Of a DNA stretch of 64,000 nt, positions 26,599 to 45,320 are shown piece by piece. The position numbers and the translations under genes are program-made. This DNA is from Nematopogon swammerdamellus (lineage: Eukaryota > Arthropoda > Insecta > Lepidoptera > Adelidae): the NCBI GenBank assembly GCA_946902875.1, contig OX336345.1:17267395-17331394 (forward strand). The letters are read 5' to 3'. The notes beneath the pieces were generated by a model. It saw nothing but the letters and a program-made list of their open reading frames with translations. It was not told where the DNA came from and did no database searches. How positions within the stretch are numbered: the stretch's first letter is position 1; each line of letters begins with the position of its first letter.

Positions 26599-27086
26599 TT
26601 TAACCCCCGACGAAAAAATCGGAGGGGTGTTATAAGTTTGACGTGTGTGTGTGTGATTGTGTGTGTGTGTGTGTGTCTGTCTGTGGCATCGTAGCTCCCA
26701 AACGGATGGACCGATTTGGATGCGGTTTTTTTTATTAGAAAACTGGTTTAATCGGGATGGTTCTTAGCTATGTTTGTAATCAAGTAATCAAGTAATTAAG
26801 TAATAAAAAAATTTATGATCTTAAAAAGTGGACCGATTTTCATGCGGTTTTTTTTTAAAAGCTTGAAATAAAAGTTAAATTACAAATTTAAAAAACCCCC
26901 GACCCTTAAAAAGTCCAAAATAATTTCCGTTTACTTACTTAAAGGAGTCGGGGGACCGCTAAGTAAATACAATATAAAAACTCAAGAGCTGCGCGGGCAT
27001 TTACTTAGCGGTCCTCCGACTCCTTTAAGTAAGTAAACGGAAATTATTTTGGACTTTTTAAGGGTCGGGGGTTTTTTAAAATTGTA
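26599..27086 (+). repeat. Repeat with (GT)n and 3' long hairpin, copy 1
   Basis: Head TTTAACCCCCGACGAAAAAA, a (GT)n microsatellite, TGGCATCGTAGCTCCCAAAC and GGATGGACCGATTTGGATGC, then a roughly 90-bp inverted repeat (CCCCCGACCCTTAAAAAGTC...GGAGTCGGGGGACCGCTAAG / reverse complement) around a short loop with AGAGCTGCGCGGGC. Copies: 62424-62910 (plus) and 44850-45320 (minus). Confidence 0.85.
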
Positions 27087-27819: not shown

Positions 27820-30395
27820 AGCTGAGCCCGCGGCTCCGCTCGCGTGAAATTCGTATTTCAAAGAAGAAAGTAAGTAACTGAGGGCGAGGCCGAAGGCCGA
27901 GCTGCGTTCAGGAAGACTATAAACCTTCTCGAAGAAAGTAAGTAACTAAGGGCGAGGCCGAAGGCCGAGCTGCGTTCAGGAAGACTATAAACCTTCTCGA
28001 AGAAAGTACGCAACTGAGGGCGAGGCCGAAGGCCGAGCTGCGTTCAGGAAGACTATAAACCTTCTCAAAGAAAGTACGTAACTATGGGCGAAACCAAAGG
28101 CCGAGCTGCGTTCAGTAAGACTATAAACCTTCTCGAAGAAAGTAAGTAACAAAGGGCGAGGCCGAAGGCCGAACTGCGTTCATGAAGAATATAAACCTTC
28201 TCGAAGAAAGTAAGTAACAAAGGGCGAGGCCGAAGGCCGAGCTGCGTTCAGGAAGACGATAAACTTTCTCAAAGAAAGTAAGTAGCTGAGGGCGAGGCCG
28301 AAGGCCGAGCTGCGTTCAGGAAGACTATAAACCTTCTCGAAGAAAGTAAGTAACAAAAGGCGAGGCAGAACGCCGAGCTACGTTCAGGATGACGATAAAC
28401 TTTCTCGAAGAAAGTAAGTAACTGAGGGCGAGGCCGAAGGCCGAGCTGCGTTCAGGAAGACTATAAACCTTCTCGAATAAAGTAAGTAAGAAAGGGCGAG
28501 GGCGAAGGCCGGGCTGCGTTTAGGAAGACTATAAACCTTCTCGAAGAAAGTAAGCAGCAAAGAGCGAGGCCGAAGGCCGAGCTCCGTTTAGGAAGACGAT
28601 AAACTTTCTCAAAGAAAGTAAGTAAGTGAGGGCGAGGCCTAAGGCCGAGCTGCGTTCAGGAAGACTATAAACCTTCTCGAAGAAAGTAAGTAACAAAGGG
28701 CGAGGCTGAAGGCCGAGCTGCGTTCAGGAAGACTGTAAACCTTCTCGAAGAAAGTACGCAACTGAGGGCGCAGCCGAAGGCCGAGCTGCGTTCAGGAAGA
28801 CTATAAACCTTCTCAAAGAAAGTAAGTAACTATGCCCGAAACTGAAGGCCGAGCTACGTTCAGTAAGACTATAAACCTTCTCGAAGAAAGTAAGTAACAA
28901 AGGGCGAGGCGGAAAGCCGAGCTGCGTTCAGGAAGACTATAAACCTTCTCGATGAAAGTAAGTAACAAAGGGTGAGGCCGAAGGCCGAGCTGCGTTCAGG
29001 AAAACGATAAACTTTCTCGAAGAAAGTAAGTAACTGAGGGCGAGGCCGAAGGCCGAGCTGCGTTGAGGAAGACTATAAACCTTCTCGAAGAAAGTACGTA
29101 ACAATGGGCGAGGCCGAAGGCCGAGCTGCGTTCAGGAAGATGATAAACTTTCTCAAAGAAAGTAAGTAACAAAGGGCGAGGCCGAAGGCCGAGCTGCGTT
29201 CAGGAAAACAATAAACCTTCTCGAAGAAAGTAAGTAACTGAGGGCGAGGCCGAAGGCCGAGCTGCGTTCACTAAGACGATAAACTTTCTCGAAGAAATTA
29301 AGTAACTGAGGGCGAGGCCGAAGGCCGAGCTGAGTTCAGGAAGTCTATAAACCTTCTCGGAGAAAGTAAGTAATAAAAGGCGAGGCCGAAGGCCGAGCTG
29401 CGTTCAGGAAGACGATAAACCTTCTCGAAGAAAGTAAGTAAGGAGGGTGAGGCCGAGGGCCGAGCTGCGTTCAGGAAGACTATAAACCTTCTCGAAGAAA
29501 GTAAGCAACAGAGGGCGAGGCCGAAGGCCGAGCTGCGTTCAGGAAGACGATAACCTTTTCGAAGAAAGTAAGTAACAGAGGGCGAGGCCGAAGGCCGAGC
29601 TGCGTTCAGGAAAAATATAAATCTTCTCGAAGAAATTAAGTAATTGAGGGCGAGGCCGAAGACCGAGCTTCGTTCAGGAAGACTATAAACCTTCTTGATG
29701 AAAGTACGTAACTGAGGGCGAGGCCGAAGGCCGAGCTGCGTTCAGGAAGACTATAAACCTTCTTGATGAAAGTAAGTAACTGAGGGCGAGGGCGAAGGCC
29801 GAGCTGCGTTCAGGAAGACGATAAACCTTCCCGAAGAAATTAAGTAATTGAGGGCGAGGCCGAAGGCTGAGCTGCATTCAGGAAGACTATAAACCTTCTT
29901 GATGAAAGTACGTAACTGAGGGCGAGGCCGAAGGCCGAGCTGCGTTCAGGAAGACGATGACCTTTTCGAAGAAAGTAAGTAACAGAGGGCGAGGCCGAAG
30001 GCCGAGCTGCGTTCAGGAAGGCCAATAACCTTCTCGATGAAAGTAAGTAACTAAGGGCGTTGCCGACGGCCGAGCTGCGTTCAGGAAAACTATAAACCTT
30101 CTCGAAGAAATTAAGTAATTGAGGGCGACGCCGAAGGCCGAGCTGCGTTCAGGAAGACTATAAACCATCTTGAAGAAAGTAAGTAACTATCGCCCATAGT
30201 TACTTACTGTCATCGAGAAGGTTTAGCGTCTTCAAGGATTCAGGTCGGCCTTCGGCCAAGCCCTTAGTTACTTACTTTCTTCAAGAAGGATTATAGTCTT
30301 CCTGAACGCAGCTCCACCGTAGGCCTCGCCCTCAGTTACTTACTTTTTTCTTTTGAAATACGAATTTCACGCGAGCGAATCCGCGGGAAAAAGCT
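27820..30395. repeat. 68-bp tandem array 3 inside an inverted-repeat element
   Basis: The left edge CTAGCTGAGCCCGCGGCTCC...GAAATTCGTATTTCAAA is mirrored at the right by TTTGAAATACGAATTTCACG...CCGCGGGAAAAAGCTA. Between them are about 34 copies of the 68-bp unit (AAGTAAGTAACTGAGGGCGA, GGCCGAAGGCCGAGCTGCGT, AGGAAGACTATAAACCTTCT). The last units (about 30185-30345) are inverted. The unit carries an imperfect GGCC-GAA-GGCC palindrome. The period is not a multiple of three, so the short open frames on the minus strand are artefacts. Confidence 0.95.
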
Positions 30396-30454
30396 ATCGA
30401 TATTAAAATAAGAAACTTAAGTTAAAATAATATTCGCCTCGCCCCGCTGCTGCC

Positions 30455-30850
30455 CCCTCTCCCTCTCCCTCTCCCTCTCCCTCTCCCTCTCCGCCTCCGC
30501 CTCCGCCTCCGCCTCCGCCTCCGCCTCCGCCTCCGCCTCCGCCTCCGCCTCCGCCTCCGCCTCCGCCTCCGCCTCCGCCTCCGCCTCCGCCTCCGCCTCC
30601 GCCTCCGCCTCCGCCTCCGCCTCCGCCTCCGCCTCCGCCTCCGCCTCCGCCTCCGCCTCCGCCTCCGCCTCCGCCTCCGCCTCCGCCTCCGCCTCCGCCT
30701 CCGCCTCCGCCTCCGCCTCCGCCTCCGCCCCGTCCCCGTCCCCGTCCCCGTCCCCGTCCCCGTCCCCGTCTCCGTCTCCGTCTCCGTCTCCGTCTCCGTC
30801 TCCCTCTCCCTCTCCCTCTCCCTCTCCCTCTCCCTCTCCTCTCCCTCTCC
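30455..30850 (+). repeat. Hexanucleotide array: (CTCCCT)n-(CCTCCG)n-(CCCGTC)n-(CTCCCT)n
   Basis: About 6 CTCCCT units, then about 39 CCTCCG units (30490-30727), then CCCCGT, then CTCCGT, then CTCCCT again. The phase changes by single substitutions, as in a slippage-evolved array. The minus strand is runs of GGAGGC, able to form G-quadruplexes. It sits about 60 bp beyond the right edge of the 68-bp array element. Confidence 0.95.
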
Positions 30851-30854
30851 TTGA

Positions 30855-31348
30855 TTTAACTATAACGCAGAAACACGTAATTCTTTATTTCATACCAAAA
30901 GCCTAAATATGAATCGTTATATCCCTAAATTGAGAAATGATGGGTTCCCCATACAAACGTTCATCCTCTATTTCACCCCCTTAGGGGTTGTTTTTTGAGA
31001 CAAAAGGTAGCCTATGTCCTTCCTCAGGATGCAATTCATCTCTGTACAAAATTTTATAAAATCCTAAAATCTAATTTTGAAATCATCCCCTATTGTAATT
31101 TAAGGGTTGATTTAGCAAAAACGCTGAAACACGTAATTCTTTATTTCATACCAAAAGCCTAAATATGAATTGTCATATCCCTAACTCGAGAAATGCTAGG
31201 TTCCCCATACAAACTTTCATCCCCTATTTCACCCTCTTAAGGGTTGTTTTTTGAGACAAAAGGTAGCCTATGTCCTTCCTCAGGATCCAATTCATCTCCG
31301 TGCAATATTTGATCGAAATCTGTTCAGCGGTTTAGGCGTGAAAAGGTA

Positions 31349-32485: not shown

Positions 32486-32628
32486 AGTAGTGTATAATTG
32501 GGCTGTTTGATTCACCTCGTCAGAAACATCGAGCTGCTCAATCATAATCGCATTCGCTTCGCTCATACTCATGATTCAAACAGCTCGATCTGTCTGTCGA
32601 GGTGAAATCAAACAGCCCAATTATAAAC
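32486..32628 (+). repeat. Left terminal inverted repeat, hairpin-forming
   Basis: Starts AGTAGTGTATAATTGGGCTG. Arms 32491-32544 and about 32570-32628 pair over roughly 50 bp (AATTGGGCTGTTTGA with TCAAACAGCCCAATT, and the CACCTCG/CGAGGTG and ATCGAGCTG/CAGCTCGAT blocks), leaving a loop of about 25 nt containing TCGCATTCGCTTCGCTCAT. The whole block matches the reverse complement of 44181-44320, loop included. Confidence 0.93.
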
Positions 32629-32845: not shown

Positions 32846-33327
32846 TAAAAAATTATATTTTCATCACACCACTTCTTTAGACATATTACATTTTTCAAAG
32901 CACAACATTTCTTATGACTTATACAATTATAATAGTATGGCTCATCACAATACTTTTCTTCTAAAATCTTAAAATTAGGACAATTCAAGCTTTCTAGATT
33001 TATTACATTTTCATTTCCAAGTAATTGTATTATCCATGCCACTTTTTCTTCACCTTTACAATAAATTTTTTTATCGCTAAAATACGGTTTAACAATTTTA
33101 TTAAATTCATACATATGCATGAAACCCCCGCCCCAGGAAATTTCCCGATTTCGTTGCAGCCAATTGACTTGTCTTCTTTCTTCAATGCTTAATTTCTCAT
33201 AGGGAAATGGTGCTTTTAGAACAAAAACTTGTGTATTCGTGTCTGCAAGCATCGCTAGTTCTTTGAGAATAAATTTGTTCTCAGAAGTTTTAAATCCTTG
33301 AACGTCCACTATGATAGGTTGAGCCAT
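32845..33327 (-). CDS. Small Polinton protein, possible DnaQ/Maelstrom-like nuclease fold
   Basis: 160 aa, last gene of the minus-strand block. It starts MAQPIIVDVQGFKTSENKF: a beta strand with a lone Asp followed by KFILKELA, as at the start of DnaQ/RNase H-fold exonucleases. The C-terminal part has a C-x3-H-x3-CC pattern (NCISHKKCCALKNV) preceded by NLESLNCPNF. A degenerate DnaQ fold with a Cys/His metal site is known from Maelstrom, so the same fold is plausible here; this is inference from pattern only and no catalytic acid set is evident. Its ATG overlaps the capsid gene stop (TAATG), suggesting coupled translation. Similar small ORFs accompany insect Polintons; the role is unknown. Confidence 0.75.
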   Translation of the reverse strand: MAQPIIVDVQGFKTSENKFILKELAMLADTNTQVFVLKAPFPYEKLSIEERRQVNWLQRNREISWGGGFMHMYEFNKIVKPYFSDKKIYCKGEEKVAWIIQLLGNENVINLESLNCPNFKILEEKYCDEPYYYNCISHKKCCALKNVICLKKWCDENIIF

Positions 33328-34538
33328 TATGTTAGTTTCCTCACAATACTGCTTAGAGGCTTATATTCTATTAAACAGTCGTTAATTATAAGACAGTAAG
33401 CTGCTGTTTTGTCAGGTATTTCCTGCTGGCTCTGAATTTCCAGTCGAACGTCAATTACCCCAGCTTTCACAGTCTCGTTTTGATGAGAACAGTCTATTAC
33501 GAAAAGTGGTGCTTTTGTTTTAAAATCGGTTAAACTTAGCAACGAGCTCGGCTGACGGCCGTAGTAAGACTGTTGAAACTTGCAGTATAACTCGTATAAT
33601 AAAGCATACTTCGACTCATTAAATTTTATGGAGAGGAGGTCATACGGGTAATAAGTTGAATTTAAAAAGACTTTAACATCAATCAAATTACAATGATCAA
33701 ATTCGGACATGTTTCCTTGAGAATTTTTGCGATTCGTTTGAAGACCTAAGACAACAAATCTAGGCTTTTCTAACTGATTCGATGTTTTAATAGACCATGT
33801 GTGTTTGGTTGTTCTAGGTAGAAGAGGGTACTCATATAAATCCCAGTTTCTAAAAGCAATTTTTAATGATTTATCTTTTTCCAGGTGCCTGAGTAAATTT
33901 AAACGCATGCGATCTGACACTTTAACGTGAGGCATTCTCCAAATTATTTTTGAAATAAATACTTCAGAAATAAATTCACCTTGATTCAGTTTTAAGGAAT
34001 TCACGTTGCTGCTACTTCTCAAAAGCACAAGCTCATGTTTGCAGTTAACTATAATTTTTTTGAAATCCTCTGCAAAGCCTAGAATTCTATTGAGGGGGAT
34101 GTTAACGGTAAAATTTCCATCGCTATTAACACCATCTGTATACCATCCCCATGCTCCAGCCATTTTCGACTCATTTTCATTCATCGAAATGTATGATTTC
34201 ATAGTTGTTGTTATACCAGCGTTTTTTATTTTATCTATTTCAACACCATTAAGCTCATATCGTATGTCTTGAAATAAAAATAAAATGGAATTGTTGATTA
34301 AATGCATATTAGGCAATTTCTCAGTTTTATTATCAGCATTCGATTTGTACGCACGAAATACACCCTCCATGTACAGGGAACTTTCTGATGGTAGTACATA
34401 CAAATCTTGCTGGTTTATCGGTATTCTAATCTCATCGTTGTTACTGAAACTATTGACATAGGGCTTATAGGAATGAATTTCAAAGCTTTCTATAGAATCA
34501 TCTTGCTCGGGCAATGCTGTTACATCGAAAATGCTCAT
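33327..34538 (-). CDS. Major capsid protein, double jelly-roll type
   Basis: 403 aa, starting MSIFDVTALPEQDDSIESFE. Long beta-rich sequence without cysteine clusters or signal peptide, in the position and gene order of the Polinton capsid protein (called PX in early Polinton literature). It has blocks typical of insect double jelly-roll proteins: EIRIPINQQDLYVLPSES, an MAGAWGWYTDG turn, ISKIIWRMPHVKVSDRMRL, and YYGRQPSSLLSLTDF near the end. Trimers of such proteins make the hexons of icosahedral shells. It is somewhat shorter than adenovirus hexon but usual for this lineage. It opens at an ATG that overlaps the stop of the 46-aa gene (ATGA) and closes with a stop overlapping the next ATG (TAATG). 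No disabling mutation. Assignment rests on pattern and neighbours; a structure prediction would settle it. Confidence 0.85.
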   Translation of the reverse strand: MSIFDVTALPEQDDSIESFEIHSYKPYVNSFSNNDEIRIPINQQDLYVLPSESSLYMEGVFRAYKSNADNKTEKLPNMHLINNSILFLFQDIRYELNGVEIDKIKNAGITTTMKSYISMNENESKMAGAWGWYTDGVNSDGNFTVNIPLNRILGFAEDFKKIIVNCKHELVLLRSSSNVNSLKLNQGEFISEVFISKIIWRMPHVKVSDRMRLNLLRHLEKDKSLKIAFRNWDLYEYPLLPRTTKHTWSIKTSNQLEKPRFVVLGLQTNRKNSQGNMSEFDHCNLIDVKVFLNSTYYPYDLLSIKFNESKYALLYELYCKFQQSYYGRQPSSLLSLTDFKTKAPLFVIDCSHQNETVKAGVIDVRLEIQSQQEIPDKTAAYCLIINDCLIEYKPLSSIVRKLT

Positions 34539-34675
34539 TTTTGTATTAATCCGATTAACCGTAAAAATTGTTTATTCTCTTTTGTTAATTTAATCACGCG
34601 TCGTTCTTGCCGAGCGATGCGTCTGTTACTGGCACATTGTTTAGGGGGAGGTGCTAATTTATTGAACACTAGCAT
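34535..34675 (-). CDS. 46-aa basic micro-protein between penton and capsid genes
   Basis: An ATG at 34675-34673 lies inside the last codons of the penton-like gene (overlap ATGCTAG), and its TGA at 34537-34535 overlaps the capsid ATG (ATGA). The product begins MLVFNKLAPPPKQC, then an arginine-rich stretch (NRRIARQERRVIKL) and TKENKQFLRLIGLIQK. The exact nesting between two genes, the strongly basic middle and the conserved-looking TKENKQFL tail argue for a real gene. A role in DNA condensation or capsid assembly is only a guess. I recall comparable short basic ORFs beside capsid genes of insect Polintons, but could not compare them here. Confidence 0.65.
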   Translation of the reverse strand: MLVFNKLAPPPKQCASNRRIARQERRVIKLTKENKQFLRLIGLIQK

Positions 34676-35349
34676 GATTTTTTTCTTAAATGCAGACACA
34701 TATGTATATCTTCCTTGCGAAGATTAACTAAACTATTACCTCCGTCGAGTATTCTTATGGTTATTGCTGATATTGTTTGCTGATTGACGGGGAAGTAGAT
34801 AATATTTTCAGGTTTTTCTAAAATCCTATAACCTGGAGGTGAATTAGGAATAAATTCGTGAATTATATGCGATGGTTTCCCGTTTATAAAAGAGCCATTC
34901 ACAATATCGCATTCGATTCTTATGACTGCTGTAGGTAGAATGGCGATCGTTTGAGTCGATTCATGAGTTATATTTGCTTTCAGCATCTCTCGGGGGAACC
35001 CGAGCAGAGAAACTATTGAATTTGGCTTCTCAAAGTGAACATCTTTCGAACAGTTGATGCTGCACTTCAAAGTGTTATTATTGGATGTAATATTAATATT
35101 ACATTTATTAATTAAATTATTTTTCAGGAATTCGCTTATATCTTGCAGCTCGTAAGAGCCTTCGGGAATTTCTAAGACATCACTATCGTTAAAATGAAAT
35201 TTGTTATTTTTATAGTCAACATTCGGAATAGAATTAAATGTTGCAAAATAGAGCAATCCACACTCGTATTCTCCGTTCAGTTCAAGTGCAGGCAAATAAT
35301 TGCTGGTTAAGAGGGAATCGGTGCCGTGAATTGACAGAGTGAAAGACAT
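34669..35349 (-). CDS. Penton-like (minor capsid) protein
   Basis: 226 aa, starting MSFTLSIHGTDSLLTSNYLP. The N-terminal half has the LELNGEYECGLLYFATFNSIPN and SYELQDISEFL blocks; the second half has a beta-rich segment (IRIECDIVNGSFINGKPSH, RILDGGNSLVNLRKEDIHM) as in the single jelly-roll minor capsid protein (PY) of Polintons. It lies directly upstream of the micro-protein and the major capsid gene and downstream of the protease, the usual order. It would form the vertex pentamers. Start 34 nt after the protease stop. No breaks. The function call is from length, position and pattern, not from an alignment. Confidence 0.7.
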   Translation of the reverse strand: MSFTLSIHGTDSLLTSNYLPALELNGEYECGLLYFATFNSIPNVDYKNNKFHFNDSDVLEIPEGSYELQDISEFLKNNLINKCNINITSNNNTLKCSINCSKDVHFEKPNSIVSLLGFPREMLKANITHESTQTIAILPTAVIRIECDIVNGSFINGKPSHIIHEFIPNSPPGYRILEKPENIIYFPVNQQTISAITIRILDGGNSLVNLRKEDIHMCLHLRKKSC

Positions 35350-35382: not shown

Positions 35383-35760
35383 TTATAAATGTATTTCCCA
35401 AAATTTGCGGAGGAATTTGACACACAGATGACCGCAATTTTTAGCATGATCTTTTTGATATTTTTTATAGTTATAATAAATTTTACACGTTTTTAAATAA
35501 TGTATTAATTCTAGCGGTGGCTGTAAATTTCCAAAACTATCGAAATATTCAGCATAATTATTTATTTTAGCATAGGCCACCCAGTGAGTTCCATGGTTTT
35601 TATTGCTATCCAAATTAAGAACACCGCACTCAATTTTTTTAGGCTTATGAGGCAGGGCATCCCTCATGTACACATTTCTAAAGTGCGGTATATCCTGAGC
35701 ATGTTCCAAGATATCTATATTTGTGAGCGCTCTTCTAGGCAGCCTTTTGATCAGTTTTTT
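35383..35760 (-). CDS. Adenovirus-type cysteine protease (maturation protease)
   Basis: C5/Ulp1-type protease. Catalytic set visible: His in NHGTHWVAYAK, Asp in AEYFDSFGNLQPP, Gln in KKYQKDH and Cys in KNCGHLCVKF, with Gln to Cys spacing of 7 as in adenain. The first ATG in frame lies after part of the N-terminal domain (35657-35655, VYMRDALP), yet the frame stays open with family-like sequence up to about 35760, where it begins inside the end of the PLA2-like gene. No AUG exists in that segment. This fits production by -1 frameshifting from the PLA2-like frame, or non-AUG initiation (for example TTG at 35709). It cleaves structural precursors during virion maturation. About 125 codons from the overlap; ends at TAA 35383-35385. 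Confidence 0.9.
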   Translation of the reverse strand, partial: KKLIKRLPRRALTNIDILEHAQDIPHFRNVYMRDALPHKPKKIECGVLNLDSNKNHGTHWVAYAKINNYAEYFDSFGNLQPPLELIHYLKTCKIYYNYKKYQKDHAKNCGHLCVKFLRKFWEIHL

Positions 35761-36494
35761 GAACCATTAAAAAATAATCCAGCTCCATTTTTATAATGTT
35801 TGAGATATAAACCATGTCCTATAGCGATTGATTCCATGGCGCTATTATGACGATGTGCTTCTTTCAAATCTTCTCTAGCTATTTTGTAATCATTCACGGC
35901 TTTAGCGATTCCAGCAGCCCCTCCAGCCAAGCTGCCTAAAGCAGATAGGCCTGCAAAAATTGGTATAAGCGGTAATATACCACCTGTTTTTGGAATTGGT
36001 ATTACTCTAGGCAATGAAATGCATGCATTCCTCGGAATAATCTTTTTTGCAAAAGCAAGCGCCCGACGAATAACCGTTTTATTGCTTTTGGATTTAATTT
36101 TTCCTAATTTAGTCTTAATTTTTTTTATCGCTGTCTTAAACGTTTTTATTTTTTTCTTTACACCGGCCCCCGCTTTCACTTTCGCCTTCATAATATTTTT
36201 CACCAGCCATGAAGCGATTTTTTCTCCTCTCCCTGCATCAGCACACTTTGAACGTTTCCCCGCTCTATCCATCAATTTTAAATCAGCTATACGTCTAACG
36301 CCCAAATTTTTTGATTTCATATATTCTATATCGTGTTCTCGACAGTAATCGTCCAATTGATTAACCCCCGTATCACCTCGCTGCAGTCTTTTATTTAAAC
36401 GCGTCCCCGGACCGCAATAATTATAGCCAGGCAGATGAATTTCAAAAGGTAAATTATTTATCAATGTATCGACTATTCCCTCCCCTTTCATCAC
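35751..36494 (-). CDS. Phospholipase A2-like virion protein
   Basis: 247 aa. N-terminal PLA2-like domain: calcium loop YNYCGPGT (residues 24-31) and catalytic dyad CREHDIEY (His54, Asp55), the same arrangement as the parvovirus VP1u and adintovirus PLA2 domains that breach endosomal membranes. A very lysine-rich middle (about 100-145) could bind DNA. The C-terminal third has a glycine/alanine-rich hydrophobic segment (PIFAGLSALGSLAGGAAGIA) and ends NGAGLFFNGSKN. Such a protein is probably internal to the capsid and released on entry. Its stop TGA (35751-35753) follows an in-phase A_AAA_AAC heptamer, linking it to the protease frame. Start ATGATG at 36494; the second ATG is equally possible. 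Intact. Confidence 0.88.
   Translation of the reverse strand: MMKGEGIVDTLINNLPFEIHLPGYNYCGPGTRLNKRLQRGDTGVNQLDDYCREHDIEYMKSKNLGVRRIADLKLMDRAGKRSKCADAGRGEKIASWLVKNIMKAKVKAGAGVKKKIKTFKTAIKKIKTKLGKIKSKSNKTVIRRALAFAKKIIPRNACISLPRVIPIPKTGGILPLIPIFAGLSALGSLAGGAAGIAKAVNDYKIAREDLKEAHRHNSAMESIAIGHGLYLKHYKNGAGLFFNGSKN
35754..35760 (-). promoter_or_regulatory. Candidate -1 frameshift slippery heptamer A_AAA_AAC
   Basis: On the minus strand the last codons of the PLA2-like frame are TCA AAA AAC TGA. The heptamer A AAA AAC is in the required X XXY YYZ phase, immediately before the stop. A -1 slip enters exactly the open protease frame. No strong stem is obvious in the next 10-40 nt, so a stimulator is unproven. 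Confidence 0.6.
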
Positions 36495-36543: not shown

Positions 36544-37470
36544 TTATACCTTGTTATCAGCATCTATCCAGCTATTTTCAGACGCGGGAAGACCCAGCCA
36601 TTTTACAAACACTTTTTCCCCATTTCTTTTTAAAACTTTTTCAACCAGGTAAATATCTGGATATCTTGTTTTCATCAGTTCTTGCTCATAAAAACATCCT
36701 GATATAATTTGGCCGTGCATATCGCTTAATATATACGAGGCAGGCCTCACTGTTTTTATTTTAGCTATTTTAAACAGTTCAGTTGACCAATTCGGATTAT
36801 ATCCCTTGGCAAAAGCTCCCTTGTATTTGCTTATACGGACATGATCACCTATTTTAAATTTCGGGGGTAGCAGCGCGTTTGCATATTTTTTTCTACTTTT
36901 TTCAATATTTGCATGAACAGCAGCCGCGTTATAATTGCTCACAATTGCAGGTTTAAAACGCGTGGTGCTGTGCACTGTATTATTGTAATTAGTCATTATA
37001 TTTGCAAGTGGTTTTCCAACCCATTTATAGTTACCATTTAAACTGAATGTTTTATACAATCGGGTTTTTAGCGTTCTTATAAAACGTTCAACGATCGAAG
37101 CTTTCTTGATAGAATATGTTGAATAATGATTAATAGATTGTTTCACCATAAATTTTTTAAATTTTTCATTGTAAAATTCTTTCCCGTGATCGGTCTGCAG
37201 GTGTGCGGGTTTTCTCCCCTTTTTTAAAATTACCTCCATCGCATTACAAATATCCTCCTTATTTTTTGTCTTCACAGGAACTGCCCATGCTAATTTCGAA
37301 AATCCGTCAATTACAACTAGTATTAATTTATATCCTCTGTTATACCGTTGAAAACTTCTCATCTCAGCCAGATCTGCTTGCCATAAATCGTCTATGCCTC
37401 GAAGCTCTACTATTCGCGTCGGAAAATTTCTACGAGCGGGTTTATGAATTTCTTCGACAACAGCCTCCAT
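36544..37470 (-). CDS. Retrovirus-type integrase with C-terminal chromodomain
   Basis: 308 aa. Core rve domain with catalytic D33 (WQADLAEM), D94 (LQTDHGKEFY) and E128 (ASIVERFIRTLK), the DDE triad of Polinton integrases. An SH3-like segment follows (FKIGDHVRISKYKGAFAKGY), then a chromodomain at about 270-308 (YLVEKVLKRNGEKVFVKWLG, ENSW), which can steer integration to modified chromatin. No separate N-terminal zinc finger is seen. It catalyses strand transfer and accounts for the 6-bp duplication. The ATG overlaps the upstream gene stop (TAATG at 37468-37472). All catalytic residues are present and the frame is open. Confidence 0.95.
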   Translation of the reverse strand: MEAVVEEIHKPARRNFPTRIVELRGIDDLWQADLAEMRSFQRYNRGYKLILVVIDGFSKLAWAVPVKTKNKEDICNAMEVILKKGRKPAHLQTDHGKEFYNEKFKKFMVKQSINHYSTYSIKKASIVERFIRTLKTRLYKTFSLNGNYKWVGKPLANIMTNYNNTVHSTTRFKPAIVSNYNAAAVHANIEKSRKKYANALLPPKFKIGDHVRISKYKGAFAKGYNPNWSTELFKIAKIKTVRPASYILSDMHGQIISGCFYEQELMKTRYPDIYLVEKVLKRNGEKVFVKWLGLPASENSWIDADNKV

Positions 37471-38938: not shown

Positions 38939-39631
38939 TTATTCGCTGGAAAGATATTCATCAAAATTTTTTCTATACCGCCCATTACTCTTTTCGCAGT
39001 CCTTATTAATTACCAAGAAATTATAGGGCTCGCTCCAAATTCTCGCCGCAATATGACGGAAATCATTAAACGACATATCGCTATTAACATGCTCATCGTA
39101 AACATGTTTCAGATTTACATCATCCTGCCGAAAAAGTATAATCAAATTAGCATTATCCCTCACAAGCTGCTTCGGTATCTTCGAGTATGTTTGAGTCAAG
39201 TAAAAACAGTCGATAAATGCATGTCTTCCCATCGAAAAGAAATCGCGAATATTATTCTGCTTTTCACACGCAATATCATCAAAAATAAAAATGGAATCCG
39301 GCAATGTTTCCAGGAGTGATATAACTTTTTCATTATCATTAAATTTTTCAAATCTTACTTCAGGTATATTATCGAAAACTTTGCTAAGGAAAAGGTATTT
39401 CGGTTGGAATATTGTTTTTGAGTAAAGATAAATGTTTCTATATTTTAACCCATTCTCGTGTAATAAGAGTGCTAAAATCAGGTTTGTTTTCCCGGAATTA
39501 CTGGCTCCGCATACTAAAGATCTTATACTATTCGGTAGAAGACTGCAATGCCTCGGCGCTGAATTTTCACTTTCACCGCAGCGATAAGCGAAATTTAAAT
39601 CTAATAATATAGGTTGTTTTACAAATTTCAT
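38939..39631 (-). CDS. DNA packaging ATPase (FtsK/HerA, A32-like)
   Basis: 230 aa. Walker A GASNSGKT at residues 42-49, Walker B IFIFDD at 113-118 and a downstream polar motif (FYLTQTYSKIPKQLVRDNAN) with the sensor-like Gln/Asn residues of A32-type ATPases. It pumps the genome into the preformed capsid. First gene of the minus-strand block, preceded by a TATA-like TATAAAA (39710-39716) in a region shared with the divergent plus-strand gene. Length and motif spacing are normal for Polintons. Intact. Confidence 0.93.
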   Translation of the reverse strand: MKFVKQPILLDLNFAYRCGESENSAPRHCSLLPNSIRSLVCGASNSGKTNLILALLLHENGLKYRNIYLYSKTIFQPKYLFLSKVFDNIPEVRFEKFNDNEKVISLLETLPDSIFIFDDIACEKQNNIRDFFSMGRHAFIDCFYLTQTYSKIPKQLVRDNANLIILFRQDDVNLKHVYDEHVNSDMSFNDFRHIAARIWSEPYNFLVINKDCEKSNGRYRKNFDEYLSSE

Positions 39632-41821: not shown

Positions 41822-43476
41822 TTGGATGAAATCGAGTTACCGTTAAAAGATAGTTTTTACAACGCGCTCACTTCGGCTGATATATCGCAAAGCGATTATG
41901 AGCATGCTGTAAATGTTTGGAGACAATTTAGAGTTTAAAGTTTGGGTCAATATACAGATCTTTACTTAAAAAGCGATGTTCTGTTATTGTGCGATATATT
42001 TGAAAACTTTAGGAATATGAGCTTAAAACATTACAAGCTCGATCCGGCTTATTATGTAACCTCGCCGGGGCTGAGCTGGGACGCGATGCTACTTCACACT
42101 AAAGTCAAACTTGAATTGATCTCTGATATAGAGATTTATCAATTTTTCGAGAAAGGTGTTCGAGGAGGATTGGCTCAGGTCTCTTTGCGATATTGTAAAC
42201 CTAATAACAAGTATCTGCCTGATCATGACGAGTCATTACCCTCAAGTTTTTGCATATATCTCGATTCAAATAACTTATATGGCTTTTCCATGATGAGGAA
42301 AATGTCGGTGTCCCAATTTTCATTTTTAACCTCGAATGAAATCGCGAGCTTGGACATTCGCTCGGTCCCCGATAACAGCGACATTGGCTATGTTTTGGAG
42401 GTTGATTTGAAATACCCGTCATATTTGCACGACGATCATTCGGATTTACCTTTCGCGCCTGAAAAACTTACACCGCCTGGCGGCGCTAACTCGAAACTCA
42501 TAGCAAGTTTATATCACAAATATAACTATGTTATTCATTACATCCACTTAAAGACATGTCTGAATAATGGTTTGATATTGAAAAAAGTGCATAGAGCACT
42601 CGTTTTCAAGCAGGATGACTTTCTGAAAAAGTATATTGAACTTAACACTTCTTTGCGCACGGTTGCCAAGTCAGAATTTGAAAAGGATAATTAAAAAAAA
42701 ATGAATAACGCTATCTTCGGAAAAACAATCGAAAACAAACGTAAGCAAGCTAATGTGAAATTAGTGAACTCGTGGAGAGACGATCGTAATATAACGAACA
42801 AGATTTTAAGCGCTGAAAAACTCGTATGCATGCCTAACTTCAAAAGCATTTCGATATTTTCAGAAAATCTAGCAGCGGTTCAATTGCATCCTGAAGAAAT
42901 TGTTTTGGACAGGTCAATTTACATCGGTTTTACCGTATTAGAACTTTCGAAAGCCCATCTATACAATTTTCATTACTCTGTAATGAAGCGAAAGTTCAGT
43001 AAAAATATAAAATTATGTTATACTGATACGGACAGTTTACTTTACCATGTGTTTACTGATGACATATACAGAGATATAAAAGACGATATTTCAAATTTTG
43101 ATACAAGCAACTTTGCCTGCAATAATATTTACGGTATACCTAGAGTAAATATGAAAGTTCCCGGTCTCTTCAAAGACGAGATGGGAGGTGTGGTTATATC
43201 AGAGTTCATAGGACTTCGCGCTAAACTGTACTGCATAAAAACATCGGATTCATCTATAAAGAAAGCAAAAGGTATATCCGGATCTGTTACCAAGCAATTA
43301 CGCAGCGATGAATACAAACACGCTCTTGACAGCGGCGCGATAGTTCGACGTAAAATGCATACTATTCGATCGGTTAATCACAAATCTTTAAATCGGTGCT
43401 CGATAGATCTGATGATAAGCGGCGATTGTTGAAAAGAAGCTATAATACTTTGCCATGGGGGCATTATAAATTGTAA
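41822..43476 (+). pseudogene. Protein-primed family B DNA polymerase, truncated and broken
   Basis: Only the polymerase half is present. Visible: LGQYTDLYLKSDVLLLCDIF, palm motif A (CIYLDSNNLYGFSM, about 42250-42295), motif B (MNNAIFGKT, 42701-42727), motif C (YTDTDS, 43019-43036), and an LPWGHYK C-terminus ending TAA at 43474-43476. The N-terminal exonuclease and terminal-protein-linked part is missing. In-frame stops lie at 41816-41818, 41936-41938 and 42692-42694, and a frameshift at about 43385-43410 moves the C-terminal block to another frame. Catalytic motifs are still readable, so decay is recent. Poly(A) signal at 43641-43646. Without it this copy cannot copy its own DNA. Confidence 0.93.
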
Positions 43477-44180: not shown

Positions 44181-44320
44181 CAGTAGAATTGGGTTATCTA
44201 ATTCACCTCGGCAGAAACATCTTGCTGTTCAGGATAATGAGCATGAGCGAAGCGATGCGAGTTAGACTGAACGGCATGATGTTTGTCGAGGTGAATTAGA
44301 TAGCCCAATTCTACACTACT
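44181..44320 (-). repeat. Right terminal inverted repeat, hairpin-forming
   Basis: Mirror of the left repeat, ending CCCAATTCTACACTACT. Arms (AATTGGGTTATCTAATTCAC with GTGAATTAGATAGCCCAATT, and CAGAAACATC...GATGTTTGTC) pair over about 45 bp around a loop with ATGAGCGAAGCGATGCGA, the reverse complement of the left loop. Confidence 0.93.
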
Positions 44321-44849: not shown

Positions 44850-45320
44850 AGCTAAATTACAAATTTAAAAAGCCCCGACCCTTAAAAAGTAATAAAATAT
44901 TTCCATTTACTTACTTAAAGGAGTCGGAGGACCGCTAAGTAAATATCCACGCAGCTCTGAGTTTTTATATTTTATTTACTTAGCGGTCCCCCGACTCCTT
45001 TAAGTAAGTAAACGGAAATTATTTTTGATTTTTTAAGGGTCGGGGATTTTAATTATTTGTAATTTTACTTTTATTATAAGCTTTTTTTAAAAAACCGCAT
45101 TCAAATCGGTCCTTTTTAAGTTAATAAATTTGTTTGATTACTTACTGGATTAAAAGATCTAGCTAATAAGAACCATCCACATTACCCCGCTTTCTAATAA
45201 AAAAACCGCATCGAAATCGGTCCATCCGTTTGGGAGCTACGATGCCACAGACAGACACACCCATGCACACACATACCCACCCTTACATACACCCATACAC
45301 ACATACACACACACGTTAAC
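44850..45320 (-). repeat. Repeat with long hairpin and (GT)n, copy 2, minus strand
   Basis: Reverse-orientation copy of 26599-27086: the hairpin (CCCCGACCCTTAAAAAG...GGAGTCGGAGGACCGC and reverse complement) comes first, then TCGGTCCATCCGTTTGGGAG, CATCGTAGC reversed and (CA)n. Confidence 0.85.

What the first reader, a model, noticed from the sequence alone, without database searches (positions are those of the whole stretch)
35707..35762. Candidate -1 frameshift joins PLA2-like protein and protease
The PLA2-like frame ends TCA AAA AAC TGA. The A AAA AAC heptamer is in perfect phase and abuts the stop, and the -1 frame is open straight into the protease, which has family-like sequence but no AUG before its conserved N-terminal part. 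A capsid-internal PLA2 and protease fusion would package the protease with its substrates, like retroviral Gag-Pro.
Basis: partly seen in the sequence, partly recalled or inferred. Interest (0 to 1): 0.88.

Follow-up and report, generated by a model that had tools for sequence, protein, structure and literature searches.

The report
Possible ribosome slip before Polinton protease
In one copy of a virus-like mobile element, the capsid-maturation protease has no usual start signal but directly follows a strong ribosome-slip sequence at the end of a lipase-like gene, so it may be made as a fusion protein, although a decayed start cannot be ruled out without relatives.

Summary
On the minus strand the PLA2-like ORF (36491-35751) ends TCA AAA AAC TGA; the A AAA AAC heptamer (35760-35754) is in phase and touches the stop. 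The -1 frame runs 123 codons from the slip point through an adenain-like protease. Its first ATG is codon 34 of the open frame; the other eight late ORFs have one within 21 codons. Codon usage looks coding from the junction on. Of 25 in-phase heptamers in nine late ORFs, only this one and one near the end of the next gene open long -1 frames. Chance of a canonical heptamer in four in-phase positions is 3.3%.

Against: PolB of this copy is broken; no nearby pseudoknot was found; insect Mavericks of nearly the same gene order list PRO as a separate 133-aa ORF (PMC5803895). No relative was obtained, so conservation, the decisive test, was not done. Programmed -1 frameshifting leads at 0.45; an A-run length change by mutation or assembly error follows at 0.35. 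Frameshift-made adenain fusions were suggested before, with hexon (PMC11071296).

The parts
35754..35760 (-). A AAA AAC slippery heptamer, in phase with the PLA2-like ORF
35751..35753 (-). TGA stop of the PLA2-like ORF, directly after the heptamer
35751..36491 (-). PLA2-like protein, 246 aa (PF08398, E 2e-12, above cut-off); adenain-type sites MKGE/G at its N-terminus and LAGG/A further on
35383..35766 (-). Protease open frame, 127 codons stop to stop, no ATG before codon 34; 123 codons from the slip point (35754) on; adenain-like with H, D, Q, C aligned
   Evidence: (PF00770 E 0.0096, below cut-off)
35665..35667 (-). First in-frame ATG of the protease, past its N-terminal part
35765..35767 (-). 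ATG in the third frame just upstream of the heptamer; its frame closes after 10 codons
35603..35752 (-). Possible large branched RNA structure downstream (150-nt MFE -39.6, z -1.86 against shuffles); no H-type pseudoknot found within 90 nt
36544..37470 (-). rve integrase with a sub-cut-off chromodomain hit, upstream neighbour
34669..35349 (-). 226-aa ORF, called penton by position only (no Pfam hit); in-phase A AAA AAA at 34684-34678 near its end
34535..34675 (-). 46-aa basic ORF; its ATG overlaps the stop of the previous gene, its TGA overlaps the MCP start; lies in the -1 frame after the second heptamer
33327..34538 (-). Double jelly-roll major capsid protein (PF21738, E 3e-110)
38939..39631 (-). 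Packaging ATPase (PF04665 Pox_A32, E 2e-7)
41939..43432 (+). Broken PolB: the piece 41939-42694 matches PF03175 positions 143-366 of 468 and is bounded in frame by TAA at 41936-41938 and 42692-42694; the next piece (to 43432) has no Pfam hit and is assigned by recalled motifs, as is a frame change near 43400

Best explanation
The junction is a -1 programmed ribosomal frameshift site. Most ribosomes stop at TGA and make the PLA2-like core protein. A minority slip back one base on A AAA AAC and continue, making a PLA2-protease fusion of about 369 residues. The fusion would carry a fixed minority of protease into the particle together with its substrate, and the protease could then free itself and trim the PLA2-like protein. 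Shown: the heptamer, its phase, its contact with the stop, the open coding-like -1 frame, and the missing AUG. Inferred: that slipping occurs, at what rate, that the fusion is packaged, and that cleavage takes place.
For: In-phase A AAA AAC touches the stop. The protease is the one late ORF of nine with no ATG within 21 codons of its opening; its first ATG is codon 34. The codon-usage score of the 35 codons after the slip point is 0.119 per codon against -0.42 and -0.20 in the other frames; whole late genes score 0.12 to 0.19, though eight of these nine also trained the score. Of 25 in-phase heptamers in the late ORFs, the two with -1 openings above 19 codons (123 and 47) are also the only two within 2 codons of their stop. 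The other eight late genes read as single frames, most of them of sizes like those of the Sf Mavericks. H and D align with adenain in a 13.6-bit stretch, Q and C in a second stretch of -0.1 bits. The 150 nt downstream fold well: 9 of 200 shuffles fold as well, and so do 2 of 130 windows of the late module, some of which overlap this stretch. Frameshift-made hexon-adenain fusions were proposed for adintoviruses (PMC11071296 section 16).
Against: One copy only, with no relatives examined. PolB of this copy is broken. No H-type pseudoknot was found within 90 nt. RNA folds of 63 to 103 nt are no better than shuffles (z 0.03 to 0.33), and the 100-nt MFE is ordinary (39 of 132 windows fold as well). 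An in-phase heptamer near the stop has a few percent chance, and an identical in-phase A AAA AAC lies inside the MCP gene with a -1 opening of only 14 codons. A third-frame ATG lies just upstream. Sf Mavericks list PRO as a separate ORF of 133 aa, longer than the whole open frame here.
Confidence: 0.45

Rival explanations
1. The frames are out of step because the length of the A-run changed, by mutation in a decaying copy or by an assembly error. The ancestor had an ordinary separately started protease, or a continuous fused frame. The heptamer is then a by-product of the homopolymer.
For: The PolB domain of the same copy is cut by in-frame stops on both sides. A-runs are indel-prone (general knowledge). 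A third-frame ATG lies at 35767. The integrase and the 160-aa gene start in the same CATAATGG context, and this third-frame ATG reads TTAATGG. PMC8097293 (passage) reports 96% of vertebrate Maverick loci eroded; PMC10120064 (passage) reports false frameshifts from collapsed assemblies. Sf Mavericks list PRO separately.
Against: The other eight late genes show no split, so the single hit would have to fall at one of 22 distinct runs of six or more (23 listings, one shared), and at a gene border. The run lies in the PLA2 frame too, so its stop directly after the run would be a further coincidence.
Confidence: 0.35
2. The protease is translated on its own from a non-AUG start such as the CUG at 35754-35752, or by reinitiation after the PLA2 stop, and the heptamer is incidental.
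For: Neighbouring genes are packed with start-stop overlaps at four junctions, which suits termination-reinitiation. A CUG with A at -3 sits at the slip point.
Against: All four of those overlaps use AUG, so a non-AUG start would be the exception. The in-phase heptamer would be coincidence (1.7 to 3.3%).
Confidence: 0.1
3. The protease is a 3' exon joined by splicing to an upstream AUG-bearing exon.
For: The finding itself names it, and an AG lies shortly after the stop. Splice sites were not scored.
Against: Intact vertebrate Mavericks are described with intronless ORFs (PMC8097293 passage). No transcript data here.
Confidence: 0.05
4. The protease start was lost by a point substitution and the gene is simply dead; the heptamer is chance.
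For: Broken PolB.
Against: It needs both a start loss and a chance heptamer; the other late genes show no split.
Confidence: 0.05

Closest known systems
Hexon-adenain ('Hexain') and penton -1 frameshift candidates in adintoviruses (PMC11071296; section 16 and passages read)
   Same: Adenain-type protease joined to a virion protein by a predicted -1 slip in the same virus group. The penton 3'-end slip also has a possible counterpart here at 34684.
   Different: Partner is the hexon, not the PLA2-like core protein. Their prediction rests on KnotInFrame; no pseudoknot was found here.
Spodoptera frugiperda Maverick 1 and 2 (PMC5803895; section 11 part 1 of 2 and passages read)
   Same: ATP 228, ORF2 305, INT 310, CAP (PLA2) 258, PRO 133, ORF6, ORF7 404, ORF8 158 aa, with POLB on the opposite strand in Sf Maverick 2; the order is taken from the ORF numbering and from CAP being called the 4th small ORF. 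Here: 230, 316, 308, 246, at most 127, 226, 403, 160 aa.
   Different: PRO is listed there as a separate 133-aa ORF; both uses of 'frameshift' in the text are in the errantivirus section. An extra 116-aa ORF precedes INT here, a 46-aa ORF precedes the MCP, and ORF6 is shorter there (148 aa).
Retroviral gag-pro frameshift sites of the A AAA AAC type (recalled)
   Same: Same heptamer class; structural protein upstream and protease downstream in the -1 frame.
   Different: Unrelated proteins, a DNA element, and no defined stimulatory pseudoknot here.
Adenovirus protease, adenain (1avp)
   Same: H, acidic, Q and C positions align.
   Different: Weak match (E 0.07); adenain is independently started (recalled); this frame has 127 codons against 204 residues.

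Membership tests
-1 programmed ribosomal frameshift site | X XXY YYZ heptamer in the zero frame | tested here: met
   A AAA AAC, 35760-35754
-1 programmed ribosomal frameshift site | Open coding -1 frame without its own upstream AUG | tested here: met
-1 programmed ribosomal frameshift site | Stimulatory RNA structure a few nucleotides downstream | tested here: inconclusive
   No H-type pseudoknot in 90 nt and ordinary 100-nt fold; the 150-nt branched fold is unusually stable
-1 programmed ribosomal frameshift site | Conserved across relatives | not testable with these tools
   No relatives retrieved
-1 programmed ribosomal frameshift site | Trans-frame product made | not testable with these tools
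   needs a reporter assay or peptides
Polinton/Maverick (adintovirus-like) | rve integrase with chromodomain | tested here: met
   PF00665 E 1.4e-11, above cut-off; the chromodomain hit PF00385 (E 3e-4) is below its cut-off
Polinton/Maverick (adintovirus-like) | Double jelly-roll capsid protein and packaging ATPase | tested here: met
   PF21738 E 3e-110; PF04665 E 2e-7
Polinton/Maverick (adintovirus-like) | Family B DNA polymerase | tested here: met
   PF03175 E 2e-14 for one piece; the gene is broken. Protein priming not tested
Polinton/Maverick (adintovirus-like) | Terminal inverted repeats and 6-bp target duplication | tested here: inconclusive
   142-nt, 78% inverted match 32486-32625 / 44184-44320, each arm itself hairpin-like; target duplication not tested
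Adenain-type cysteine protease (C5) | H, D/E, Q, C in order | tested here: met
   aligned to 1avp, the Q and C part in a stretch of only -0.1 bits
Adenain-type cysteine protease (C5) | Pfam PF00770 above curated cut-off | tested here: not met
   16.1 bits against 21.3; Sf Maverick PRO is similarly weak in CDD (E 6.1 and 0.58). So 'adenain-like' is claimed here, not formal family membership

The most novel reading that the evidence does not exclude
A Polinton late module that uses two -1 slip sites, one to tether the maturation protease to the PLA2-like core protein and one to extend the gene before the MCP with a basic tail. That would be a Gag-Pro-like packaging strategy in an integrating double-stranded DNA virus lineage.
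Probability: 0.15. Interest if true: 0.75.

Novelty: new variant of a known kind. Interest (0 to 1): 0.5.

Why it matters
How Polintons and adintoviruses get their protease into the particle, and at what dose, is not described in the passages I could read. A conserved slip site would give a testable answer and a parallel to retroviruses. If the junction proves to be decay, it is a caution against reading programmed frameshifts from single broken copies.

Tried and rejected
IMG/VR: all 8 scans gave no relative. These were protease, MCP, PLA2-like and integrase proteins and patterns for protease, MCP, PLA2 and integrase motifs. One search gave 11 loci and one search gave one. Against 12 element proteins the best tblastn value was E 0.028, phmmer gave nothing, and L029 matched over 15 residues only; L002 and L009 look like phage contigs by eye. 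Prokaryote genome contigs: one search found none; one search found 17 loci, none related. Phage records: no match for MCP or protease. No second copy of any of the 12 tested element proteins in the window at E 0.01. PHROGs gave nothing for the protease and only weak unnamed families for the PLA2-like protein. NCBIfam gave only two far-below-cut-off hits, both for the 226-aa ORF. A single-sequence AlphaFold model of the protease was poor (pLDDT 41) and was not used. Repeat 26825-26984 / 44958-45117 was rejected as the element's ends because it is a dispersed repeat.

Papers: three searches answered; some searches failed. I saw no report of a PLA2-protease frameshift in the passages read, but Starrett 2021 is not held, nor is the paper asked for. 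No claim of absence from print is made beyond those searches.

Full report
What is there. The window holds a Polinton/Maverick-type element. On the minus strand lie a packaging ATPase (39631-38939), a 316-aa ORF (38844-37894), a 116-aa ORF (37820-37470), an rve integrase with a sub-cut-off chromodomain hit (37470-36544), a PLA2-like protein (36491-35751), a protease frame (35766-35383), a 226-aa ORF taken as penton by position only (35349-34669), a 46-aa ORF (34675-34535), a double jelly-roll capsid protein (34538-33327) and a 160-aa ORF (33327-32845). PolB pieces lie on the plus strand. Order and most sizes match the Sf Mavericks of PMC5803895 (section 11 part 1 of 2 read), with POLB reversed as in Sf Maverick 2. 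Differences are extra 116-aa and 46-aa ORFs here and a longer ORF after the protease.

The junction. The PLA2-like ORF ends TCA AAA AAC TGA. A AAA AAC at 35760-35754 is in phase and touches the stop. The -1 frame opens at 35766 and, read from the heptamer's last base, stays open for 123 codons. It encodes a small adenain-like protein: PF00770 at E 0.0096, below the cut-off, and 1avp at E 0.07, with H and D aligned in a 13.6-bit stretch and Q and C in a stretch of -0.1 bits. The Sf Maverick PRO proteins are also weak in CDD (E 6.1 and 0.58).

No start codon. Eight of nine late ORFs have an ATG within 21 codons of the opening of their frame. The protease's first ATG is codon 34 (35667); starting there would drop 33 residues of the open frame. 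The 35 codons after the slip point have coding-like codon usage in the -1 frame (0.119 per codon) and not in the others (-0.42, -0.20). Whole late genes score 0.12 to 0.19, but eight of the nine also trained the score. So the protease gene most likely reaches back to the junction.

How much is chance. In-phase canonical heptamers are 25 of 2142 codons in the nine late ORFs. A random-codon model gives 3.3% for any canonical heptamer in four in-phase positions and 1.7% for 11 strong ones chosen from memory. Among the 25, only two lead into -1 frames longer than 19 codons: this one (123) and A AAA AAA at 34684 near the end of the 226-aa ORF (47 codons, into the 46-aa ORF, which has its own ATG). 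They are also the only two within 2 codons of their stop. The same A AAA AAC occurs in phase inside the capsid gene with a 14-codon opening, so the heptamer alone means little.

RNA structure. Folds of 63, 83 and 103 nt downstream are no better than shuffles (z 0.03, 0.33, 0.27). The 150-nt fold is better (z -1.86, 9 of 200 shuffles as good). Two of 130 windows of the late module fold at least as well over 150 nt, some windows overlapping this very stretch, and 39 of 132 over 100 nt. A simple home-made search found no H-type pseudoknot scoring below zero in 90 nt, whereas 100 shuffles of that stretch averaged -2.6. So a classical stimulator is not seen; a branched one is possible.

State of the copy. 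The piece 41939-42694 matches the PolB domain at positions 143-366 of 468 and is bounded in frame by TAA at 41936-41938 and 42692-42694. The following piece, to 43432, has no Pfam hit; that it continues PolB, and that the frame changes near 43400, rests on motifs I recall. None of five frames tested upstream of 41939 matched a family. The late genes, by contrast, each read as one frame of plausible size. This contrast is odd and allows both readings: the junction may work, or it may be the one visible disruption.

Rivals. The strongest is a change in the length of the A-run. It is favoured by the broken PolB, by a third-frame ATG at 35767 in a TTAATGG context resembling the CATAATGG starts of the integrase and the 160-aa ORF, and by the separate PRO of the Sf Mavericks. 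It is disfavoured because one event among 22 long runs would have to land on the gene border. The run is also in the PLA2 frame, so the PLA2 stop directly behind it would be a second coincidence. Non-AUG initiation, splicing and start loss each need the heptamer to be chance. The odds given are my judgement, not a computed result.

Mechanism if real. A minority PLA2-protease fusion of about 369 residues would bring the protease into the particle with a substrate. Of the nine late ORFs, the PLA2-like protein alone has both adenain-type sites (MKGE/G at its start, LAGG/A at 189-193 of the stop-to-stop frame). The 226-aa ORF has one, the other seven none. The consensus is recalled, and short motifs like these arise by chance.

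Prior work. PMC11071296 (section 16) suggests from KnotInFrame that some adintovirus pentons end in a slip site and that hexon-adenain fusions show a similar relationship. It also defines membrane-active capsid core proteins, some with predicted lipase activity (passage). A PLA2-adenain fusion was not mentioned in what I read. PMC8097293 (abstract and passages) reports most vertebrate Maverick loci as degraded and the intact ones as intronless. In PMC4028283, PMC3671162 and PMC4642659 (passages) the word frameshift has 0 occurrences.

Limits. No relative of this element could be fetched, so the decisive comparison was not made. Confidence in programmed frameshifting is 0.45.

Noticed in passing
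34684-34678 and 34675-34535, minus strand: A second in-phase heptamer, A AAA AAA, sits two codons before the stop of the 226-aa ORF and opens 47 codons in the -1 frame into a basic 46-aa ORF with its own ATG (ATGCTAG overlap). This resembles the penton slip proposed in PMC11071296.
   Followed up: partly
37470 and 33327, minus strand: Two gene junctions share CATAATGG, where the stop TAA overlaps the next ATG by one base; the 46-aa ORF and MCP overlap as ATGA. This suggests termination-reinitiation or very tight packing.
   Followed up: no
41939-43432, plus strand, against 39631-32845, minus strand: The PolB domain is cut by in-frame stops on both sides while each late gene reads as one frame apart from the protease junction: an uneven pattern of decay.
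   Followed up: partly
33327-34538, minus strand: The ORF matching Sf Maverick ORF7 in size and place scores E 3e-110 to a double jelly-roll capsid domain; PMC5803895 stated that Sf Mavericks lack a homologue of the PY capsid protein.
   Followed up: no
32486-32625 and 44184-44320: Inverted 142-nt match (78%), each arm a hairpin in itself: possible element ends or a pair of palindromic repeats.
   Followed up: partly
27860-30353: Tandem array with a unit of about 68 bp and a diverged inverted part, followed by a long GC-rich simple repeat at about 30420-30860.
   Followed up: no
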